Shown: in pieces, positions 4,184-59,240 of the stretch
Position numbering within the stretch: position 1 is the stretch's first letter
Layout of the letters: the number at the start of each line of letters is the position of its first letter
From: Hydrogenimonas sp. SS33
Lineage (GTDB): Bacteria > Campylobacterota > Campylobacteria > Campylobacterales > Hydrogenimonadaceae
Direction of reading: 5' to 3'
NCBI RefSeq assembly: GCF_040436365.1
Contig: NZ_AP026369.1
Span: forward strand, 62,001-126,000
Length of the DNA: 64,000 nucleotides
Notes under the pieces: generated by a model
What the model saw: only the letters and a program-made list of their open reading frames with translations
Databases searched by the model: none
Told to the model about the DNA's origin: nothing
Position numbers and translations under genes: made by a program

Positions 4184-4194
4184 TAAGTTACCTA

Positions 4195-4317
4195 CTTACG
4201 TTACGCAAAAGGCGTAACGTCCTCTCGAAATCTACGATTTCGTAGCTTTAGGGGGGTGCAGGGGACGGCCGGTCCCCGCCAAAGCTTGGGCTTTGCTCAA
4301 GCTTTGCGTAACGTAAG
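4195..4317 (+). repeat. Multi-hairpin interspersed element, copy 1 (R1)
   Basis: A 123-bp element bounded by a perfect 15-bp inverted repeat (4195-4209 and 4303-4317). It contains four internal hairpins: arms ACGTTACGC/GCGTAACGT (4198-4206, 4212-4220), CTACGA/TCGTAG (4232-4245), GGGGAC/GTCCCC (4261-4266, 4272-4277) and AAAGCTTG/CAAGCTTT (4281-4288, 4298-4305). It starts 11 bp after the stop of the ThiF-like gene and ends before the ribosome binding site of the arginine kinase gene. Three related copies lie at 17448, 24985 and 48313. No T-run follows it, so it is not a classical terminator. Confidence 0.85.
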
Positions 4318-4345
4318 TGACCTGTATATTCTTCAAGGATTCCCC

Positions 4346-15536: not shown

Positions 15537-15540
15537 CCCG

Positions 15541-15625
15541 TAAGTTAGAAGTGAGAAGTAAGAAGTGGTAAGTTTTACAACTACTTACTCCCCACTTCTC
15601 ACTCCTCACTTCACATTTCCCACTT
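15541..15625. repeat. Heptanucleotide array with complementary halves
   Basis: Twelve or so 7-nt units in strict register: AGAAGTG, AGAAGTA, AGAAGTG, GTAAGTT, then TACTTAC, TCCCCAC, TTCTCAC, TCCTCAC, TTCCCAC. The second half is roughly the reverse complement of the first, so the whole could fold as a long imperfect hairpin. It lies in the 5' leader of the chaperone gene. Confidence 0.8.
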
Positions 15626-16298: not shown

Positions 16299-17449
16299 GT
16301 ACACTGATATTCGAACCGGCACGCTGCGTCCGCAGTGTCACCAAATTTTCCGACTGTACCAAATGTGTCGACATCTGCCCCGTCGATACGTTGACCATCG
16401 CCGAGAACAACCTGCCCGCCTTCGTCCCCTCGGCATGCGTCGACTGCGGCGGCTGCATGGGGGTCTGCCCGACGGAGAGTTTCAAACTCAAGGATTTCGA
16501 TGCCACCGAATTCTTCTTCGAATTCGCCGCGGAACCCTCGCCGCTCATCTCCTGCCGCGTCAATGTCCCCTGCATCATGGCGCTCTCCACCGAGCACCTG
16601 ATATCGCTGGCACTTGTGAAAGAGAAACCGGTCATACTCGATATCGGCCACTGCCACACCTGCCCCTACAAAGAGCCTCTTTACGCCAACATCCTCAAAA
16701 GCGTGGAGGAGGCGAACTACCTGTTGGAGGCGATCGAGAGCGGCAAAAAGATCGAACTACAAGAGATCGCGGCGAGAGAGCAGGGGGTCGGTGACGATGT
16801 GGATCAGAACGACCGGCGCGCCTTTCTGGAACGCTTGTCCCTGAAAGGGGCGGTCAAGTCGAAAGCCCAGTTCGAAGAGCTGCTCGAAGCGACCAGCGAC
16901 GAGATGCGCGAACATGCGGTCGGCCTGGCCGAAATCGCACGCATTAGGCAAAAGGAGCTTCCCGACAAGCGGAAGATCCTCTTCACCGCCCTCAAAAGGG
17001 CGCCAAGGCCCGAACGGTACCATACGATCGCCGAAGAGGATATCTCCTTCGCCTCCCAGAAATTCATCGACATGGAGACCTGCACCAACTGCCAGATGTG
17101 CTACCGCATCTGCCCGACGGGGGCGCTCAGCAGCGACCCGAAGAACAGCAAAATCTTTTTCGACGCGATGATGTGTGTCAAATGCCGGGCCTGCCACGAC
17201 ACCTGCGAGCCCGACAGTCTGAAGCTGCAGCCCACCTTCGAATTGAAGGAGTTTTTTGAGCCGACCCAGCGGCTTCTGGCGGCATTCAGGCTGATCCGCT
17301 GTGACGAATGCGGCATCCACTTCACCTCCCTGCACGGAGAGCGGGTCTGCCCCCGGTGCGCCGTGGAGGAGGAAGAGGCCCTGGAACTCTGGGGCCTCGA
17401 GGAGAAACCCGACGGCTCCATCTGGTTTATCGAAGAGGAGGAGAAATAA
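16295..17449 (+). CDS. Multi-cluster ferredoxin-like protein with C-terminal zinc ribbon
   Basis: A 384-residue cytoplasmic protein (no signal peptide). It has a pair of [4Fe-4S] motifs at the N-terminus (CTKCVDICPVDTL, CVDCGGCMGVCPTES) and another pair in the C-terminal half (CTNCQMCYRICPTGA, CVKCRACHDTCEPDS). A CDEC...CPRC ribbon lies near the end. The middle contains a CHTC site and helices. It overlaps the chaperone gene by four bases, so a role in assembling or feeding electrons to the molybdoenzyme is likely. Similar Fe-S proteins accompany formate dehydrogenase and related clusters in Campylobacterota. The exact reaction is unknown. Confidence 0.75.
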   Translation: MSTLIFEPARCVRSVTKFSDCTKCVDICPVDTLTIAENNLPAFVPSACVDCGGCMGVCPTESFKLKDFDATEFFFEFAAEPSPLISCRVNVPCIMALSTEHLISLALVKEKPVILDIGHCHTCPYKEPLYANILKSVEEANYLLEAIESGKKIELQEIAAREQGVGDDVDQNDRRAFLERLSLKGAVKSKAQFEELLEATSDEMREHAVGLAEIARIRQKELPDKRKILFTALKRAPRPERYHTIAEEDISFASQKFIDMETCTNCQMCYRICPTGALSSDPKNSKIFFDAMMCVKCRACHDTCEPDSLKLQPTFELKEFFEPTQRLLAAFRLIRCDECGIHFTSLHGERVCPRCAVEEEEALELWGLEEKPDGSIWFIEEEEK

Positions 17450-17572
17450 CATTTCGCGAATGCGGAATGTTTTCTCGAAATCTTCGATTTCGAAGTTTTA
17501 GGGGAACCACAGAAACCCTTTGGGACGACCAGTCCCCGCCAAAATATGGGCTTCGCTCATATTTTGGTAAAA
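17448..17572 (+). repeat. Multi-hairpin interspersed element, copy 2 (R2)
   Basis: The most diverged copy of the family at 4195. Hairpin arms: AACATTTCGC/GCGGAATGTT (17448-17457, 17462-17471), CTTCGA/TCGAAG (17482-17495), GGGAC/GTCCC, and CAAAATATG/CATATTTTG (17540-17548, 17558-17566). The first arm begins inside the TAA stop codon of the ferredoxin-like gene. Arm sequences differ from copy 1, but each stem remains paired. It lies 22 bp upstream of the next start. Confidence 0.8.
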
Positions 17573-18437: not shown

Positions 18438-18466
18438 AAACTAAAAGTTGTTAGTTATTAGTTGAA
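18432..18466. repeat. Heptanucleotide array (AGTTATT type)
   Basis: Five 7-nt units: AGTTAAA, AACTAAA, AGTTGTT, AGTTATT, AGTTGAA. The first unit supplies the stop codon of the AroE-like gene, and the array ends at the ribosome binding site of the next gene. Confidence 0.65.
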
Positions 18467-19971: not shown

Positions 19972-20880
19972 CTGCATTTTACGTTTGAGCATCCCTGGCT
20001 TTTTCTTCTGTTGCTGCTGCTTCCCTGCTTCTGGCGCTGTCCCGCCGGCGTCGTGAAGCTCTATTTTCCGAAAATTTTGCTGCTTCCCGCCTCCCGTTTC
20101 TCTCTTTCTAAAGAGCCGCTGCTCTATGCGTCGGTCTATCTGTTTGCCGTGACGGCTCTCGCTTCGCCGGTGACCTATGACCGCCTGGCCGCCAGCGAAC
20201 GGCACGGGCGCGACCTGGTGCTGGCGCTGGATACCAGCGGCTCCATGGCGGAATCGGGTTTTGACAGGGAACATCCGATGCGCCGGAAATTCGATGTCGT
20301 CATCTCCCTGGTCAAGAGCTTTCTCAAAAACCGTCACGACGACAATATCGGCCTGGTGCTCTTCGGCTCCTTTGCCTTCGCCGCCTCTCCCGTCACCTAC
20401 GATCTGGCGGCACTGCAGGAGATCGTCGACACGGCCGACGTGGGGGTGGCGGGGCAGAGTACCGCCATCGGCGAGGGGATCGACCAGGCGCTTCGGGCCC
20501 TCTCTTTTTCCCATGCCAAAAAGAAGGTGATCGTACTGATGACCGACGGTTACCAGAACGCCGGGTCGGTCTCGATCAAGGAGGCGGTGGAGAAGGCGAA
20601 GCGCCGGGGTGTCAAAATCTACACCATCGGCATCGGCAAACCGAAAGACTACGACGCCAAACTGCTGAAAAAGATCGCCGACGAAACGGGCGCGAAAAGC
20701 TTTTCCGCCGCCAATGCGGAGGATTTGAAGGAGGTCTTCGAAGAGCTCGACAGCCTGGAACCCAGCCCCATCCGCTCCCATACGATGATCAACCGGCGGC
20801 CTCTGTATCAGTGGCCGCTGCTTGGGGCGATGATTCTGCTGATCGGGTATCTCTCTTTTGGGGGGAGGGTGAGAAGGTGA
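19972..20880 (+). CDS. batA: BatA-like von Willebrand factor A membrane protein
   Basis: An inner-membrane protein whose VWA domain projects into the periplasm, with N-terminal and C-terminal helices. The metal-ion site is DTSGSM with a later TDG; both are intact. The family N-terminus (FEHPWLFLLLLLLP) is encoded upstream of the first TTG (20011). The likely start is therefore a CTG at 19972, six bases after GAGG; no ATG, GTG or TTG is available between the preceding stop (19954) and there. The C-terminal RVRR and stop are written in heptamer-repeat sequence. It heads a Bat operon linked to oxygen tolerance and usually to a MoxR ATPase, which is not in this window. Confidence 0.8.
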   Translation: MHFTFEHPWLFLLLLLLPCFWRCPAGVVKLYFPKILLLPASRFSLSKEPLLYASVYLFAVTALASPVTYDRLAASERHGRDLVLALDTSGSMAESGFDREHPMRRKFDVVISLVKSFLKNRHDDNIGLVLFGSFAFAASPVTYDLAALQEIVDTADVGVAGQSTAIGEGIDQALRALSFSHAKKKVIVLMTDGYQNAGSVSIKEAVEKAKRRGVKIYTIGIGKPKDYDAKLLKKIADETGAKSFSAANAEDLKEVFEELDSLEPSPIRSHTMINRRPLYQWPLLGAMILLIGYLSFGGRVRR

Positions 20881-21114
20881 GAAGGTGGGGAGGTGAGAAG
20901 GTGATGGGTCGTTGGTCGTTGGTCGTTGGTCGTTGGAACGGGGCTTCGCCCATTTTTTTGGCATTGGGCATTGGGCATTGGGCATTGGGGAGTGTAAGTA
21001 ACGATTATGGTAACGACATACCACATACTACTCACCTTCCCACCAGCCGCGTAGCGGCGATCTCACCTTCTCACCATTTCTACCTTCGTTTTCTGTTCAC
21101 TGTTCACTGTTTCC
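20866..21114. repeat. Compound heptanucleotide array with terminator-like hairpin
   Basis: This stretch holds several 7-nt arrays in series: GGTGAGAA-type (20866-20900), GGTCGTT x4 (20907-20935), GGGCATT x4 (20960-20988), then CTCACCTTC-type units (21030-21075) complementary to the first array, and TGTTCAC x2 (21093-21110). A triloop hairpin GGGC-TTC-GCCC (20941-20951) followed by seven Ts sits between arrays. It fills the 250 bp between batA and the next gene. No ORF of interest is inside. Confidence 0.85.
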
Positions 21115-21130
21115 CCCCGAAGGACTGGGC

Positions 21131-22723: not shown

Positions 22724-23999
22724 GATGAGGGGTGGGAAAGTGAGAAAGTGGGAAGGTGAGAAGGTGGGAAGGTGGGAAGGTGATTTTTGTTATTTTCCCG
22801 TCTTACCTTCTAACATTCTCACCTTCTTACCCTCTCACCGTCCCACCGTCTCACCGTCTCACCTCCTCACCCTCATCCTGCTGATGCTTGCCTTTTTTCC
22901 TCTGATGGGGGCCGACGACTACCGCTACACTCTCACGCTCGACCCGCCGCGGGCCATGGCCAAAACACCGATCCTGCTGACGGTGAAGATCGAGCAGACG
23001 GACCCCTCCAAAGTCCTCTTTTTCGACTTCAAGCCGGTCGGCAGCCACTTTCTTTTCCACAGGCTCGACAAAAAGGTGAACGAGGAGATGCACCACCGCG
23101 TCGAACGGTTCGTCTATCTGGTCTATGGGACGAAGAGCGGCGAATGGCCCATCGGGGGGGAGATACGCGTTCAGCGCACCAACGAAGAGCGGATCGTCGA
23201 CAGTACCATCGTGGACCAGTTCAACGCCCGCACCCTCCAGAGCGAGGAGAGTGTGGACCGCGTGACGCCGGTGAGGGTGACGATCGACCCGCTTCCAGTT
23301 CGGGCCGACCTGGTCGGCGACTTTCGTATGAAAAGCTCCCTGGACAGGCGGCAGACCGAAGCCTTTCGCCCCGTGCACCTGACGCTCCATCTGGAAGGCA
23401 TCGGCTTTCCGCCCCCCGAACAGTTCTTTACTTTCAAGATTCCCGGCGTCCAGGTCTTTGCCGACAAGCCGGCCATGCGGCTGCGCTACACGCCCCGGGG
23501 CGTGCGCGTCGATGCAGACTACACTTTCGCCTTCAGCAGCGACCACGACTTCACCATCCCTCCCCGCCTTTTGCGCCTCTACTCTCCCACGAGGCGCCAG
23601 AGCCGCCGCATCGGCTTCGCCGGCGCTAAGATCCGGGTCGTCACCCCGCCTTCGCTTCGCCAGGCGCTGCTGGATAGGGAGAACGACCCGCCCAGTATCT
23701 TTGAGCGCATCGAAGCGTGGCGCGCCTACACCGTCGACGCGCTGGTGGTGCTGCTCGGCTTTCTCTCCGCTTTCGTGGTGGCGTGGGTCCGGCGCCGTAT
23801 CGGGCGGCTTTTCGTCAAAGACCCCTTTGTTGAAAAGGTTCGCGCCGTCAAAGAGCCCCGCGCCCTTTTGATGCTGCTGATTCAAAGTGACCCCAAACGG
23901 TGCGCCCCCTGGATCGATCGGATCGAGACAGCGCTGCACGAAAAGAGGCCCGTGGAGATGAGACGGATCAAACGGGAGATCGTGAAGGGGTGTCGATGA
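22704..23999 (+). CDS. BatD-like protein 1
   Basis: About 431 residues. The mature part starts near ADDYRYTLTLDPPRAM and consists of Ig-like beta domains. A membrane helix (VDALVVLLGFLSAFVVAWV) and a cytoplasmic tail follow, the usual BatD layout. The signal region is odd: after MKRGRG there are about 45 residues encoded entirely by heptamer repeats (22728-22868) before the hydrophobic core LLTLILLMLAFFPLMGA. The frame is kept through the array. The only later in-frame ATG (22884) would leave too short a signal. The gene overlaps the previous gene by 20 bp and the next by four (ATGA). Confidence 0.72.
   Translation: MKRGRGEMRGGKVRKWEGEKVGRWEGDFCYFPVLPSNILTFLPSHRPTVSPSHLLTLILLMLAFFPLMGADDYRYTLTLDPPRAMAKTPILLTVKIEQTDPSKVLFFDFKPVGSHFLFHRLDKKVNEEMHHRVERFVYLVYGTKSGEWPIGGEIRVQRTNEERIVDSTIVDQFNARTLQSEESVDRVTPVRVTIDPLPVRADLVGDFRMKSSLDRRQTEAFRPVHLTLHLEGIGFPPPEQFFTFKIPGVQVFADKPAMRLRYTPRGVRVDADYTFAFSSDHDFTIPPRLLRLYSPTRRQSRRIGFAGAKIRVVTPPSLRQALLDRENDPPSIFERIEAWRAYTVDALVVLLGFLSAFVVAWVRRRIGRLFVKDPFVEKVRAVKEPRALLMLLIQSDPKRCAPWIDRIETALHEKRPVEMRRIKREIVKGCR
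22728..22868. repeat. Heptanucleotide array with complementary arms inside batD1
   Basis: About eight GGTGGGA/AGTGAGA-type units (22728-22785), a short AT-rich spacer, then about ten units of the complement (CTTCTCACC, CGTCTCA; 22800-22868). The arms can pair as a long imperfect hairpin. The whole array is read through by the batD1 frame without a stop. Confidence 0.85.
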
Positions 24000-25006
24000 A
24001 GTTCGTCACTGGTCATTGGTCATTGGTCATTGGTTTTTTTCTTCGCACGAAAAATTGGCTTTGGACCCTTTTGCTGTTCGCCGGTGTGGGATATGGGGCC
24101 GATTTTCGCTATTCGCTTACGCTGGACCGTCACGAGGCGTGGGTCAAAGCGCCGATTGTGCTGCATTTTAACGTGGAACAGACCGATGCGTCAAAGGTGA
24201 TGTTTTTCGATTTCAAGCCGCTGGAAGAGGGGAGTTTCAAAGCGATCCGCCTCGACAAGAAGGTCGACAACGCCTACCACCACCGAAAGGCGCAGTTTAC
24301 CTATCTGCTCTTCGGGCTGAAACCCGGAACCGTGACGCTGAAGTTCGACCTGCTGGTGCGGCGCACCAACGAGGCGACCATCGCCCAGAGCACCACCGGC
24401 GGCCGCTACAACGTGAAAGATGTGGAGACTCAGGACCGCCATGAACCGATCCCCCCGGAGACCCTCCGCCTCAAGCCGCTGCCGGCGCCGGTGGACCTGG
24501 TGGGCGATTTCACGCTCCAAAGCCGTGTCAGCGCCCAAACGACCCGTGCCGGCCGCCCCGTCTATCTGACGATCCGCCTCAAAGGGGTCGGCTACCCGCC
24601 CCGGAAACGGTTGATCCGCGTCGAGGTTCCGGGGGTCGACATGTTCGAAGACACGCCGAAGGTGTCGCTGCGCTACGGCCCCAAAGGGGCGCTCTACGAT
24701 GCCACCTACACCTATGCCATCAAAGCGGACCGTGACTTCTTGCTCCCCTCTTTGAGGCTGAAAGCCTTTTCTCCCGCCGGCGGGAAGCTGTACGAGCTGA
24801 AGAGCGACGAAATCGCCGTTCAGGTCCTGGCACCGGAGAAGCCACGCAAAGCGCCCCCTCCCGAACCGAAGAAGGAGCGTTCCCCTGCAACAGAGTGGTG
24901 GCCGCAAGTGAAAAGTATTCTTTTTTACGGAGCGCTTTTTTTGATAGGATATATCAGCGGAACCCTGTGGCTCAAAATCCGAATGGACGTTACGAGAAAA
25001 ACGTAA
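23996..25006 (+). CDS. BatD-like protein 2 (tandem paralogue)
   Basis: 336 residues from ATG 23996, overlapping the batD1 stop. It aligns by eye with BatD1 over most of its length (YSLTLDRHEAWVKAPIVLHF against YTLTLDPPRAMAKTPILLTV; VEQTDASKVMFFDFKPL against IEQTDPSKVLFFDFKPV). It ends in a proline-rich linker and one helix (SILFYGALFLIGYISGTLWL). The N-terminal GHWSLVIG is encoded by GGTCATT repeats ahead of the true hydrophobic segment. The last codons and TAA stop are inside hairpin element R3. A tandem duplication of batD is the simplest origin. Confidence 0.78.
   Translation: MKFVTGHWSLVIGFFLRTKNWLWTLLLFAGVGYGADFRYSLTLDRHEAWVKAPIVLHFNVEQTDASKVMFFDFKPLEEGSFKAIRLDKKVDNAYHHRKAQFTYLLFGLKPGTVTLKFDLLVRRTNEATIAQSTTGGRYNVKDVETQDRHEPIPPETLRLKPLPAPVDLVGDFTLQSRVSAQTTRAGRPVYLTIRLKGVGYPPRKRLIRVEVPGVDMFEDTPKVSLRYGPKGALYDATYTYAIKADRDFLLPSLRLKAFSPAGGKLYELKSDEIAVQVLAPEKPRKAPPPEPKKERSPATEWWPQVKSILFYGALFLIGYISGTLWLKIRMDVTRKT
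24007..24033. repeat. GGTCATT heptamer array at the batD2 5' end
   Basis: Three and a half units of GGTCATT in the first codons of batD2, followed by a T7 run. The same unit occurs at 25512, 31820 and 59188. It encodes part of the signal region (GHWSLVIG). Confidence 0.75.
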
Positions 25007-25112
25007 CGTCCTCTCGAAATCTTTGATTTCGAAGCTTTAGGGGGGTGCAGGGGACACTTGTGTCCCCGCCAAAACAAGCGAAGCGTTCCCAAAGGGATGT
25101 TTTGCGTAACAT
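24985..25112 (+). repeat. Multi-hairpin interspersed element, copy 3 (R3)
   Basis: Hairpin arms: GGACGTTACG/CGTAACGTCC (24985-24994, 25002-25011), CTTTGA/TCGAAG (25021-25034), GGGGACAC/GTGTCCCC (25050-25067) and CAAAACA/TGTTTTG (25070-25076, 25098-25104). The first hairpin contains the last five codons and stop of batD2. The fourth stem has a longer loop than in copy 1. Confidence 0.82.
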
Positions 25113-25511: not shown

Positions 25512-25641
25512 TATGGTCATTGGTCACTGGTTATTGGTCATTGGGGGGCGTCTTCGGCGCTTTTTATTGAAACGGAAAGCGGAAATCGGGAAACGGGAAA
25601 TGGCAAGAAGAATATTTTCGCACCTTCCCACCCTCTCACTT
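25512..25641. repeat. Composite heptamer element (array - hairpin - T-run - array)
   Basis: In order: GGTCATT-type units (25512-25541), a GC hairpin around GGCGTCTTCGGCGC followed by TTTTT, GGAAA-spaced units (25570-25600), an AT palindrome near AGAATATTTTC, and CACCTTC/CCCTCTCA units (25621-25641). The same parts in the same order occur at 31714-31857 on the other strand. It covers the leader and signal-peptide codons of the NosD-like gene. Confidence 0.75.
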
Positions 25642-31713: not shown

Positions 31714-31857
31714 TTCGGGGTGAGAGGGTGAGAAGGTAAAAAGGTGAGAAGGTGAGAAGGTGGGAAAGTATTCTACTTTCCGATTTCCGTTTCCCCAAAA
31801 AGGCGCCGTAGGCGCCCCCCAATGACCAATGACCAATGACTAGTGACCAAAAACCAA
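31714..31857. repeat. Composite heptamer element, reverse orientation
   Basis: Read on the minus strand: GGTCATT-type units (31855-31820), then a perfect triloop hairpin GGCGCC-TAC-GGCGCC with TTTTT (31817-31796), GGAAA-spaced units, an AT palindrome (AGTAGAATACTTT), and CACCTTC/TTCTCAC units (31765-31714). It has the same module order as 25512-25641. It fills the whole gap between pgpA and the methyltransferase gene. Confidence 0.85.
31796..31817 (-). terminator. Intrinsic terminator within the composite repeat, downstream of pgpA
   Basis: On the minus strand, GGCGCC, a TAC triloop and GGCGCC are followed directly by TTTTT. It lies about 40 bp after the pgpA stop. Stem and T-run together look like a functional Rho-independent terminator carried by the repeat. 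Confidence 0.6.
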
Positions 31858-32328
31858 TCATGATATCCCCGCCAAAGAGAACAAATGGAGCACCAGGGCG
31901 CTGGAGAGGCCCGCCATGGCACCTGCGAGAATGTCGTCCCCCATGACGCCCCATCCGCCGGGGGCCTCCCGGTCGATGCGGCCGACGAGGGAGGGTTTCC
32001 AGATGTCGTAGAGGCGGAAGAAGAGAAAACTGAGCACCGCCGCCGGCAGGGTGGGGCCGCTGATGCAAAGTGCGAGCCAGATGCCGGCGATTTCATCGAT
32101 GACGATGCGGCTGTCGTCATGGATGCCGGTGCGGGCCTCGTAGACGTTGGTGGCCCTGACGCCCCAGAGCGTCACGAGAATGGTCAGTAGAAAAAGGGTT
32201 TGCAGCGGCAGCCACTGAAGAATGAGAAGCCCGAGTATCAGCCCCGTCAGCGACCCCCATGTCCCCGGCGCTTTGGGAAGCATCCCGCTTCCCAGGCCGG
32301 CCAGAAAGAGTTTCTCCTGAAAGGTCAT
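31858..32328 (-). CDS. pgpA: Phosphatidylglycerophosphatase A
   Basis: 156 residues from ATG 32328, which has a strong AAAGGAG five bases upstream. The ATG at 32367 overlaps the previous stop but has no ribosome binding site of its own. It dephosphorylates phosphatidylglycerol phosphate in the inner membrane. Motifs: KAPGTWGSL, DDSRIVIDEIAG, FRLYDIWKPS and GGWGVMGDDILAG, all standard for PgpA, with three or four membrane helices. The same neighbour order (ispDF, regulator, sat-like, pgpA) occurs in Campylobacter. Confidence 0.9.
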   Translation of the reverse strand: MTFQEKLFLAGLGSGMLPKAPGTWGSLTGLILGLLILQWLPLQTLFLLTILVTLWGVRATNVYEARTGIHDDSRIVIDEIAGIWLALCISGPTLPAAVLSFLFFRLYDIWKPSLVGRIDREAPGGWGVMGDDILAGAMAGLSSALVLHLFSLAGIS

Positions 32329-37024: not shown

Positions 37025-37129
37025 CCGCGCTTTGCGCGGTCGTCGTTTGTCGTTTGACATTTGACATTTGAACGGAGCTTCGCTCCTTTTGATGGATAAA
37101 ATCCAATATTCAAAGAGGGCCGAAGGCCC
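37025..37129. repeat. Triloop hairpins with a short GTCGTTT/GACATTT heptamer array
   Basis: After the thiC stop: hairpin CCGCGC-TTT-GCGCGG (37025-37039); heptamers GTCGTTT, GTCGTTT, GACATTT, GACATTT (37040-37070); hairpin GGAGC-TTC-GCTCC with TTTT (37074-37090, terminator-like); and hairpin GGGCC-GAA-GGCCC (37117-37129). It belongs to the same modular family as the arrays at 20866 and 31714. Confidence 0.7.
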
Positions 37130-46701: not shown

Positions 46702-48310
46702 CCGCAAAACGCTGCTTTTGCTGCTCTTCGCCGCTGTCGTATTGTTGATAGGGGCGGGCAGTTACGGGGTCATCGAAACCAGTGACGCCCGGTATGCCGA
46801 GATCGCCCGGGAGATGCTGCAAAGCCGCGACTGGCTCCACCCCTCTTTGCTTGGGATCCACCACTACCACAAACCGCCGCTGACCTACCAGATCACGGCG
46901 CTGGGGTATGGACTTTGGGGCATCAACCCCTTCGGTGCGCGCTTTTTCCTCCAGATGTCGGTGGTGTTGCAACTGCTGCTTATCTACCTGACCGCCCGGC
47001 GCCTGGGGCTGGATGCGCGCGTCGCCCGGTGGGCCGCGGCCGTCTACTTCTCCTTTCCCCTGGTACTCGCCTCCTCCCGTACCCTGACCACCGACTCTTT
47101 TCTGACCACCTTTGCTCTGGCAGCCGTCTACAGCTGGGTCGGTTATCGCCGGGAGGGGCGGGCGCGATGGCTCTATCTGCTCGCTCTGTGGCTCGGACTT
47201 GGCTTTCTGACCAAAGGGCCGGTTATTCTGATCGCTCCGGTGCTCTTCGCACTCTTCTGGCGCCCGGAGACCGCAGGCCGTGCCGCGCCCAGGTACCACA
47301 AACTTTTCGCCGCCGCTCTTTTCGTGCTGCTGTCTGCTTCCTGGTTCCTCTATCTGGCCCGCGAAAACCCCGCTTTCTGGAGCTATTTCATCGAGCGGCA
47401 GACCATCCAGCGCTTCGGAAGCAACGTGTTTCACCGCCATGAGCCCTTCTGGTACTACTGGCTCTACGCCCCGCTGGTCGGCCTGCCCTGGCTGGCGGCG
47501 CTGCCGTGGCTTTGGGCCCGGGCGGAGGCCGGGGGAGAAAAGAAGCTTCTTCGCGCCCTTCTGTTGGCCGGATTGGCGGGCATGCTCTTCTTCTCGCTCT
47601 CCTCTTCCAAACGCATCCTCTACATCCTCCCCCTCTTCGGATTCTTCGCATTGGCCGTTGCCATGCTGATCGACCGGCTGGGTGCGTCGGATGCCGAAAG
47701 GCTGGAGAGAGGTGTGAAAGCCTATGCCGTCGGTATAGCCCTCCTCTTTGCCGCCGCGCCGTGGCTGCCCCTGCCCGGGGTGCATCTTCCCGCCGTCGTC
47801 ACCCTTTACGCCCTGGGGGCGCTGCTTGCTCTGGCGGGGCTGGGAAGATGGAAGATCTTTTCCAAAAGCAGGGCGGTGCTTGCCGCGGTGATCGCCTCGA
47901 CCCTGTTGCTGCTGGCCGCGACAGCGACCTTGAGCCGCTCCCCCGAATCTTTCAAAATCGCCGACCCCGTCGCCCGATGGATTCGGGCCCGTCACCTGCA
48001 GGAAAGGACCGTCCTGGTCTACGACCGGCGCCTACCTTCTTTGGCTTTCACCCTCAAAAAGCCGATCGTATCGCTCTATGACTGCAGCCGGGACCTTGAC
48101 AGGGAAACGCGGTTCGAAAAAGACGAGAGATGGAGAGAAAACCTGTATAATCTCAAAGACCCGAAAGAGCGGAAGCGGCTGAAACGGGCGCTTTCAAACA
48201 CCGACTATCTGCTGGTTCTTTTTGCCAAAAAGCTGCCCGAAAACCGGCGATGGCTGATCGAAAAGCTCCCCCATGTCGGGAAAATCGGGCGCTGGACGGT
48301 CTATTACTGA
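46682..48310 (+). CDS. ArnT/PMT-type (GT83) lipid glycosyltransferase
   Basis: 542 residues from ATG 46682. A GT-C membrane enzyme with about twelve helices. The first periplasmic loop carries the catalytic pattern ETSDARYAEIAREML, with HKPPLTYQ following and GFLTKGP later. ArnT-type enzymes transfer a sugar from polyprenyl phosphate to lipid A or a protein. A C-terminal periplasmic domain is present. It overlaps the LAB_N gene by 20 bp. The sugar is unknown because no arn biosynthesis genes are here. Confidence 0.82.
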   Translation: MAALSIDRKTLLLLLFAAVVLLIGAGSYGVIETSDARYAEIAREMLQSRDWLHPSLLGIHHYHKPPLTYQITALGYGLWGINPFGARFFLQMSVVLQLLLIYLTARRLGLDARVARWAAAVYFSFPLVLASSRTLTTDSFLTTFALAAVYSWVGYRREGRARWLYLLALWLGLGFLTKGPVILIAPVLFALFWRPETAGRAAPRYHKLFAAALFVLLSASWFLYLARENPAFWSYFIERQTIQRFGSNVFHRHEPFWYYWLYAPLVGLPWLAALPWLWARAEAGGEKKLLRALLLAGLAGMLFFSLSSSKRILYILPLFGFFALAVAMLIDRLGASDAERLERGVKAYAVGIALLFAAAPWLPLPGVHLPAVVTLYALGALLALAGLGRWKIFSKSRAVLAAVIASTLLLLAATATLSRSPESFKIADPVARWIRARHLQERTVLVYDRRLPSLAFTLKKPIVSLYDCSRDLDRETRFEKDERWRENLYNLKDPKERKRLKRALSNTDYLLVLFAKKLPENRRWLIEKLPHVGKIGRWTVYY

Positions 48311-48312
48311 CT

Positions 48313-48431
48313 GATGTTACGCAAAGCTTGAGCAAAGTCCAAGCTTTGGCGGGGACTGGCCGTTCCCTGCACCCCCCTAAAGCTACGAAATCGTAGATTT
48401 CGAGAGGACGTTACGCCTTTTGCGTAATGTC
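48313..48431 (-). repeat. Multi-hairpin interspersed element, copy 4 (R4), inverted
   Basis: Reverse-strand copy nearly identical to R1 at 4195. It keeps the CTACGA/TCGTAG stem, GGGAAC/GTCCCC (one mismatch) and CAAAGCTTG/CAAGCTTTG. It starts two bases after the ArnT-like stop, but is oriented opposite to that gene. It ends inside the leader of the next operon. Confidence 0.85.
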
Positions 48432-48522
48432 TGTTATTGAATTTTTCGATCCACTCTTCACACAATCTTCATTTTCCTCCTCTAAACTTCAAACCATGAA
48501 AATCCACATTGAAAGGATGGTG

Positions 48523-54689: not shown

Positions 54690-54690
54690 T

Positions 54691-54961
54691 AGACTTCTTG
54701 CAGAACCATACGCAGATATGAGAGGCATAAAAAGGGGTAAGATCGTGAAAAACAAATTTTTCGGCGTAGCCAAAGCTACGTTGAAAACATTTTTTTATGC
54801 GAGATTGCCCCTTTCTATGCCTCCCGTAGGGCAAAAAGATAGACCGATTGACTCTGCGTTGGAAACCTCCTACGTAGCTTCGGCTACGCCTGGGAACATC
54901 TGCCTTGATTGAATCGTTTCTCTTTTTGCTCATACTGTGTATAGTTTTGCAAGAAGTCTAA
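54691..54961. mobile_element. MITE-like element with approximately 31-bp terminal inverted repeats (full copy)
   Basis: The left end begins AGACTTCTTGCAGAACC and the right end is its near-complement (GTTTTGCAAGAAGTCT), with pairing continuing to GATATGAG/CTCATACT. TA at both edges could be a target duplication. Inside, GAGGCAT...AGGGG (from 54721) pairs with the stretch at 54812-54832, and a C(TTCG)G hairpin lies near 54878. No transposase. An 84-residue ORF inside is not convincing. The partial copy is at 41966. Confidence 0.75.
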
Positions 54962-55065
54962 TGAAGACAACATCGGGTTCGTGCGTTTGGCACGCGGGAG
55001 TGCGATTTGCCCTACGGGACGCGGCCCCATTCCCAAAAACCGCTAATGCCTGCGCCCCCTTAAGG
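54962..55065. other. Non-coding remainder between the MITE and glnD
   Basis: About 100 bp with a short inverted repeat (CGTGCG...GGCACG) and a GC-rich stretch ending at the glnD stop. Together with the MITE it makes the longest gene-free stretch in the window (376 bp). I see no gene, promoter or clear terminator here. Confidence 0.5.
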
Positions 55066-58739: not shown

Positions 58740-59200
58740 TGGAGCGCATCGGCTACGATTACGCCACTTTCGTCGAAGACTTGAAAACCCTGGCGGACAG
58801 GATGGAGGCCGATTTCGACGCCATCGTCGCCGTCGCAAGGGGCGGCATGACCATGGCCCATATGTTGGGGGAGTACTGGGATATCCGGGAGGTTTTCGTC
58901 ATCAACTCCGTCGGGTACGAAGGGACCGAAAAGCTGGCGTCGCCCACCGTCTTCAACGTCCCCCAACTGGCGGGCTTCAGGCGCGTGCTCGTCGTGGACG
59001 ACATCGCCGACAGCGGCGAAACCCTTGACGCCGTGACGAAGGTGCTGCAAAAAAGTTTCCCCGATACCGCCTTTGCGACGGCGACACTCTTCTACAAACC
59101 CGAAAAGTCAATCGTGGAGCCCGATTACTGGCTCAAACGCGCCGATGCCTGGATCGACTTCTTCTGGTCCGATGATTTGAAAAGGGTCATTGGTCATTAG
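58739..59200 (+). CDS. Purine-type phosphoribosyltransferase
   Basis: 153 residues from ATG 58739. A type I PRTase fold with the PRPP loop VLVVDDIADSGETLDAV and an N-terminal DAIVAVARGGMTMAHML. It resembles bacterial Gpt/Hpt-like purine salvage enzymes. The last residues VIGH and TAG stop are formed by the GGTCATT heptamer array. Co-transcribed with mqnE. The base specificity cannot be read from the sequence. Confidence 0.85.
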   Translation: MERIGYDYATFVEDLKTLADRMEADFDAIVAVARGGMTMAHMLGEYWDIREVFVINSVGYEGTEKLASPTVFNVPQLAGFRRVLVVDDIADSGETLDAVTKVLQKSFPDTAFATATLFYKPEKSIVEPDYWLKRADAWIDFFWSDDLKRVIGH

Positions 59201-59240
59201 TCATTGGTCATTGGGATGTTCAAAAACAATGACCGATGAT
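59186..59240. repeat. GGTCATT heptamer array at the phosphoribosyltransferase 3' end
   Basis: Four units (GGTCATT, GGTCATT, AGTCATT, GGTCATT) then CAATGACC in the opposite sense and a TTTTT run. It supplies the terminal codons and stop of the upstream gene and lies between convergent genes. Confidence 0.8.

What the first reader, a model, noticed from the sequence alone, without database searches (positions are those of the whole stretch)
20866..21114. Family of heptanucleotide (7-nt period) arrays at nine or more loci
Arrays with strict 7-nt register occur at 15541, 18432, 20866, 22728, 24007, 25512, 31714, 37040 and 59186. Units differ between loci (GGTCATT, GGTCGTT, GGGCATT, GGTGAGA, AGAAGTG, AGTTATT, GACATTT), but each locus uses one or a few of them. 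Complementary arrays often face each other so that they can fold back. Heptameric repeats are known in cyanobacteria (STRR). This density and the mix of unit types in a presumed Campylobacterota genome look unusual. The mechanism spreading them is not evident.
Basis: seen in the sequence. Interest (0 to 1): 0.75.

Follow-up and report, generated by a model that had tools for sequence, protein, structure and literature searches.

The report
Strand-oriented repeat elements with heptamer arms
This bacterium's chromosome is dotted with short DNA elements whose arms are runs of a 7-letter repeat; the main family was copied to about 26 places, nearly all pointing the same way relative to DNA replication, which gives a concrete way to ask what spreads a puzzling kind of repeat known from many bacteria.

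Summary
Exact tandem arrays of 3 or more copies: 94 at period 7, 0-12 at each other period from 4 to 30, and 0 for period 7 in a Markov control. The register is not strictly 7: the GGTGAGA-type arrays in the window are octamers. Many arrays are parts of composite elements. The main one ("H") has 26 copies: (TTGGTCG)n - hairpin - (TTGGTCA/TTGGGCA)n - an 84-bp core - hairpin - (ACTNYYC)n. All 26 cores lie in one orientation relative to replication (25/26 with a less favourable terminus), while most control MITE families show no such bias and flanking genes do not explain it. The finding's locus is a variant H-like insertion (about 265 bp) between two VWA genes; about ten congeners have a short junction there. 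Tail units are unlinked to core ancestry, and unbroken 18-21-unit arrays sit beside cores about 13% diverged, so arrays expand in place after dispersal. Best reading: a non-autonomous mobile element, perhaps entering single-stranded lagging-strand template, with 7-nt slippage at its arms. Heptamer excess and TTGGTCA arrays are known or seen elsewhere; the oriented composite element is, as far as I could find, undescribed. No enzyme was identified.

The parts
20860..21126 (+). Composite insertion between two VWA-domain genes (the finding's locus): octamer arm, H-like interior, octamer and heptamer arms; ends approximate
   Evidence: About ten congeners have a short junction here; VWA domains on both sides
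20868..20904 (+). (GGTGAGAA)4.6 octamer arm; the upstream VWA reading frame now ends inside it
20907..20936 (+). (GGTCGTT)4.3, first L array
20940..20951 (+). Hairpin GGGCTTCGCCC, the H1 module shared with 25 other sites (E=6e-8)
20960..20989 (+). (GGGCATT)4.3, second L array (unit TTGGGCA)
20990..21045 (+). Divergent core; not detected by the 84-bp core model
21046..21058 (+). Hairpin GCCGCGTAGCGGC in the place of the right-hand H hairpin
   Evidence: direct reading
21061..21087 (+). CTCACCTT octamer array, complementary to the left arm
21093..21111 (+). (CTGTTCA)2.7, R-type heptamer array
22731..22871 (.). Octamer fold-back: (GGTGGGAA)n facing (TCTCACCT)n; the orthologous site in G016 has GGTGAGAA plus (GGTCGTT)3
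24005..24034 (+). (GTCATTG)4.3 array at the start of a gene, in signal-peptide-like codons; G016 has CTTCTGGTCATCGGG nearby, a possible seed
25514..25600 (+). L array (TGGTCAT)n, GGGG, hairpin GCGTCTTCGGCGC, R array (GAAACGG)n; L array and hairpin also in G016, R array not
15540..15625 (.). Facing heptamer arrays AAGTGAG and ACTCCTC
18446..18464 (+). (AGTTGTT)2.7
31719..31858 (.). (GGTGAGAA)6 octamers facing (CCAATGA)5.7 heptamers, i.e. an L array on the minus strand; the minus-strand TTGGTCA run at genome 93819
37042..37071 (+). (GTCGTTT)2.1 and (TTTGACA)2.7 next to a hairpin pair
59185..59214 (+). (GGTCATT)4.3, imperfect

Best explanation
The longest arrays are the variable arms of a small non-autonomous dispersed element ('H element', about 250-500 bp): 5' (TTGGTCG)n, hairpin GGGGCTTCGCCCC, (TTGGTCA)a(TTGGGCA)b, 84-bp core, hairpin ATCAGCTTCGCTGAT, (ACTNYYC)c 3'. 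Shown: copies at 26 sites; a variant copy with an empty site at the finding's own locus; one orientation relative to replication; arm units that vary independently of the core. Inferred: an unidentified trans-acting function inserts it, most likely into single-stranded DNA of the lagging-strand template, which would fix the orientation; the arms then lengthen and homogenise in place by replication slippage in 7-nt steps. Short TTGGTCA arrays elsewhere are simpler relatives (L array, GGG, pyrimidine-rich R array) or arrays born in place from a seed.
For: 26 cores with the same module order. Orientation 26/26 by GC skew, 25/26 with the gene-strand terminus, dnaA near the origin; genes only 62.7% leading, upstream neighbour same strand 17/26, downstream 10/26; control MITEs 39/87, 7/19, 8/14. 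Empty sites at the finding's locus and upstream of pyrG. Core nearly absent from congeners. Tail type unlinked to core similarity (p=0.28) and two identical cores with different left arrays. Unbroken 127-148-nt tails beside cores 13% diverged.
Against: No transposase or other enzyme linked to H: the one RAYT-like Y1 protein has unrelated flanks and the one RT is retron-type. Exact ends, target site and any target duplication are not established. Orientation could come from selection instead of insertion. One TIR-type control family is also skewed (F, 1/12). The terminus position is uncertain. Slippage was not observed: no second isolate was available.
Confidence: 0.45

Rival explanations
1. 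No mobile element: arrays arise independently in place by polymerase slippage from chance seeds, 7 nt being a favoured step.
For: Heptamers are over-represented in many bacteria (PMC4692102; PMC6344855). The array at 24005 lies where G016 has a similar short sequence in signal-peptide codons. Simple arrays follow gene direction, not replication.
Against: 26 copies share an 84-bp core and module order, which slippage cannot make. It may still be true of some simple arrays.
Confidence: 0.1
2. H elements are mobile, but the orientation comes from selection: they work as oriented chromosomal signals (replication, segregation or recombination), or copies in the other orientation harm the cell.
For: Orientation 26/26 over both replichores, including truncated copies; none is known to be inserted one way.
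Against: Copies are patchy, specific to this species and absent from congeners, unlike known chromosome-wide signals; 84-bp core plus long arms is large for such a signal.
Confidence: 0.25
3. The arrays act at the RNA level as regulatory or transcript-stabilising sites between genes, and that is why they are kept.
For: 22 of 37 intergenic simple L arrays lie between two genes of their own direction. Similar roles were proposed for TAACTGA heptamers upstream of start codons (PMC4679880) and for STRRs (PMC2670836).
Against: H flanks vary in direction and neighbouring gene functions are mixed; sites are not conserved between species. It does not explain dispersal or orientation.
Confidence: 0.12
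4. A telomerase-like reverse transcriptase (DRT10 type) makes the repeats from a short RNA template and they are joined to the chromosome.
For: Each tail is a pure repeat of one unit, units differ between elements independently of the core, and bacterial RTs that make tandem-repeat DNA exist (PMC12632851).
Against: The only RVT_1 protein found is a retron-type RT-Toprim I-C. G004 and G008 have arrays but no RVT_1 match, though both are drafts.
Confidence: 0.04

Closest known systems
Short tandemly repeated repetitive (STRR) heptamers of cyanobacteria
   Same: 7-bp units in multicopy intergenic arrays; exact TTGGTCA arrays occur in many cyanobacteria; function unknown (PMC2670836).
   Different: Here arrays are arms of a dispersed element with an 84-bp core and fixed orientation; arrays end in TTGGG, which the cyanobacterial loci sampled do not.
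TAACTGA heptamer repeats of Beggiatoaceae (also cyanobacteria, Bacteroidetes)
   Same: Many intergenic heptamer sets in patchy, distant taxa; no spreading mechanism known (PMC4679880).
   Different: One unit only, mostly close upstream of start codons; no core reported. That paper noted a same-orientation subset in a small Microcystis sample and left it open.
Heptamers of Xanthomonas and Nostoc (GGGAATC, GGGGAYT; G-quadruplex type)
   Same: Intergenic heptamer arrays, many copies, length variation between relatives (PMC4692102).
   Different: Those have G runs of 3-4 in every unit; the H arms do not make up such a family and no core was reported.
Miniature inverted-repeat transposable elements (MITEs)
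   Same: Short, apparently non-coding, multicopy, intergenic.
   Different: H has no terminal inverted repeats seen and a strict orientation; this genome also has hairpin MITE families, mostly without that bias.
IS200/IS605-derived elements and REP/RAYT systems
   Same: Subterminal hairpins, no inverted termini, orientation tied to replication (from my own knowledge of IS608-type lagging-strand insertion).
   Different: No IS200/IS605-type enzyme linked to H; the single RAYT-like gene has unrelated flanks; ends and target not established.

Membership tests
Heptamer tandem repeats (STRR-like) | multicopy intergenic arrays of 7-bp units beyond chance | tested here: met
   94 exact arrays vs 0 in control; 152 of 178 outside genes
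Heptamer tandem repeats (STRR-like) | same unit as in cyanobacteria | tested here: met
   TTGGTCA arrays in many cyanobacteria; but array ends differ
Heptamer tandem repeats (STRR-like) | length differences between isolates | not testable with these tools
   one genome per species held
MITE | terminal inverted repeats | tested here: not met
   ends are unrelated heptamer arrays, TTGGTCG-type at 5' and ACTNYYC at 3'
MITE | target-site duplication | tested here: inconclusive
   flanks too diverged for exact ends
MITE | dispersed copies without a gene of their own | tested here: met
   26 cores, elements of about 250-500 bp
IS200/IS605-derived or REP/RAYT element | hairpins near both ends, no inverted termini | tested here: met
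   GGGGCTTCGCCCC and ATCAGCTTCGCTGAT
IS200/IS605-derived or REP/RAYT element | partner Y1 transposase with the same ends | tested here: not met
   one Y1 protein, flanks unrelated to H
IS200/IS605-derived or REP/RAYT element | insertion next to a fixed short target | tested here: inconclusive
   left boundary blurred by degenerate heptamers
DRT10 tandem-repeat synthesis | DRT10 reverse transcriptase and template RNA | tested here: not met
   only a retron RT-Toprim I-C found by RVT_1 search; template RNA not searched

The most novel reading that the evidence does not exclude
A class of replication-coupled mobile elements that enter single-stranded lagging-strand template and grow heptamer arms, of which the enigmatic intergenic heptamer arrays of many bacteria (cyanobacterial STRRs included) are the visible remains.
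Probability: 0.2. Interest if true: 0.85.

Novelty: new variant of a known kind. Interest (0 to 1): 0.6.

Why it matters
[quoted passage not shown] Here such arrays are tied to a defined dispersed element with a core, a fixed module order and a replication orientation, in a genome with many congeners for comparison. That turns 'what spreads heptamer repeats?' into a testable question: find the trans-acting enzyme, the insertion strand and the growth rate of the arms.

Tried and rejected
Reverse-transcriptase origin: only a retron RT found. RAYT mobilisation: flanks unrelated. Hairpin-promoted growth of simple arrays: hairpins near non-H arrays not above chance (13 vs 8.7 +/- 2.8; 6 of 40 on the 3' side, 14% expected). 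Fur box: the TTGAGAATGATTCTC palindrome in the core resembles one (from memory), but the G003/G004 relatives have a different palindrome there, so not adopted. RNA covariation: only 2 of 18 pairs with double changes among this genome's copies, not convincing; no Rfam match. H core in viral contigs (exact pattern) and an H element in plasmids: none. DNA core search of 60 relatives: only this genome; the covariance model adds one weak match each in G003 and G004. A probability computed over all perfect runs is biased, because runs were chosen for being perfect, and is not used as evidence.

Full report
1. Observation. TRF confirms short tandem arrays at all nine places. The unit is 7 for most, but the GGTGAGA-type arrays at 20868, 22731 and 31719 are octamers. 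The window is 62001-126000 of a single 2,254,567-bp contig. I joined that bacterial contig from fetched stretches (12,500 bases read N). Exact arrays of three or more copies: 94 for period 7, 12 for period 4, 6 for period 6, 4 for period 8, 1 for period 5 and 0 for periods 9-30; a 5th-order Markov sequence gives 0 for period 7. There are 178 exact runs of at least 17 nt; the commonest units are TTGGTCA, TTGGGCA and TGGGTAG. The window's count (6) is close to the genome average of 5.1 per 64 kb.

2. A composite element. Long L arrays (TTGGTCA, TTGGGCA) are regularly followed, about 84-87 nt downstream, by an R array (CTACCCA, CTTCTCA or CTGCTCA read on the L strand). The spacer is a conserved 84-bp core, GCGCGTTGAGAATGATTCGCAGTTTAAAATTTCGTAGAATTGACGACAACCCTTGACAACACATTCAAAATCAGCTTCGCTGAT. 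nhmmer finds 26 copies, a few truncated or divergent. Upstream lie (TTGGTCG/TTAGTCG)n and AACGGGGCTTCGCCCCTCTTTGATTTCAGTTTTT in most copies. Where both L units occur in one element, TTGGTCA precedes TTGGGCA. I call this the H element.

3. Orientation. By GC skew the origin is near 1.633 Mb and the terminus near 0.44 Mb; a dnaA-like gene lies at 1,623,400. All 26 cores run in the direction of fork movement. With the terminus taken from gene strand (335 kb) it is 25/26. The H1 module (E<1e-6) is 25/26 by GC skew and 22/26 by the other terminus, including sites without a core. Genes are only 62.7% leading; upstream neighbours are on the same strand in 17/26 and downstream in 10/26 (own rough gene finder). 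Hairpin MITE families of the same genome, used as controls: 39/87, 7/19, 8/14, 3/9 in one orientation; family C about 17/24 (its two seeds are opposite strands); family F 1/12. So one control is also skewed, but H is the strictest and rests on many copies.

4. Insertion. At the finding's own locus about ten congeners have a short junction between the two VWA genes, for example ATCTTTCCTTTAGGAGAGTGGCATGAGC in G016, whereas this genome has about 265 extra bases. The block has the H modules in order and in the H orientation: L array, hairpin 1, second L array, a divergent core, a hairpin, R arrays; in addition there are octamer arms on both sides. Upstream of pyrG this genome has H, G016 has a family-A MITE, G008 has pyrimidine-rich repeats, and G007, G011 and others have nothing.

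5. Arms and core evolve separately. Tail unit type does not follow core similarity (p=0.28). Two elements with identical cores (1506538, 1674669) have different left arrays. Cores differ by 13.1% on average, yet several tails are unbroken for 127-148 nt, 18-21 units. At half that divergence per lineage an unbroken 147-nt stretch would have a chance of about 5e-5 (my arithmetic). I infer growth and homogenisation in place in 7-nt steps.

6. Simple arrays. Outside H, L arrays are short, not biased with replication (24 vs 18), and usually lie in the direction of the upstream gene. A pyrimidine-rich tract lies 3' of 16 of 36 and 5' of 1; a periodic one 3' of 6 and 5' of 0. The same order is seen in another family of the phylum (genus g5; periodic tract 6 vs 0) and less clearly in cyanobacteria (another heptamer array 9 vs 1, one of the units listed being a run of N). 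In these genomes of the window's phylum most arrays end in TTGGG; in the cyanobacterial loci they do not. Common ancestry across phyla is therefore not shown. One array, at 24005, sits in signal-peptide-like codons where G016 has a similar short sequence, suggesting birth from a seed.

7. Relatives. DNA search finds the core only in this genome among 60 relatives; the covariance model finds single weak matches in G003 and G004, downstream of the same gene, with the second half of the core and a hairpin of different sequence. H amplification thus looks specific to this species. TTGGTCA arrays of 25 nt occur in 3 of 298 genomes of the phylum; the reversed control occurs in none.

8. Mechanism. 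Shown: dispersal, insertion, orientation, decoupled arms. Inferred: a trans-acting insertion function working on single-stranded lagging-strand template, and 7-nt slippage. No enzyme was found: one RAYT-like Y1 protein with unrelated flanks and one retron RT-Toprim. Orientation through selection remains possible.

9. Known or new. Heptamer excess in bacteria is known and unexplained (PMC6344855; PMC4692102); STRRs (PMC2670836) and TAACTGA repeats (PMC4679880) are the nearest kinds. The composite, oriented element was not found described in the papers searched, which are open-access papers only.

Noticed in passing
window 4188-4319, 17449-17570, 24985-25112, 48302-48445, 54690-55065, and genome-wide: The genome holds at least six families of hairpin, MITE-like repeats of 130-275 bp (about 87, 19, 23, 14, 9 and 12 copies), a high load for a 2.25-Mb chromosome.
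   Followed up: partly
G000:C1:1281097-1281370 family (F): One hairpin MITE family is skewed in orientation relative to replication (1 of 12, p=0.006 before correction for several families).
   Followed up: no
G000:C1:388312-390075 (L156:1384-3147): A 587-aa retron-type reverse transcriptase fused to a Toprim domain (RT-Toprim I-C).
   Followed up: partly
G000:C1:1780790-1781563: A RAYT-like Y1 transposase gene bounded by the inverted sequence GGGGTCAGGGCTTGAATTTTGAA; related genes occur in many congeners.
   Followed up: partly
L030/L162, L169, L170 (contig ends in G004 and G008): Draft contigs of sister species end inside or next to heptamer arrays, so array and element counts in drafts are likely underestimates.
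   Followed up: no
G000:C1:1917737-1920173: A 2.4-kb block of repeats with the motif TTTCTAAGCTGCCTACGCGGCAG, probably a CRISPR array; judged by eye only.
   Followed up: no
L333, L338, L353, L355, L359 (G040, G269): Genus g5 of another family carries its own composite elements: TTGGTCA array, GGG, hairpins with GCGTTGC, then ATTCCTC/ATTCACC-type arrays.
   Followed up: partly
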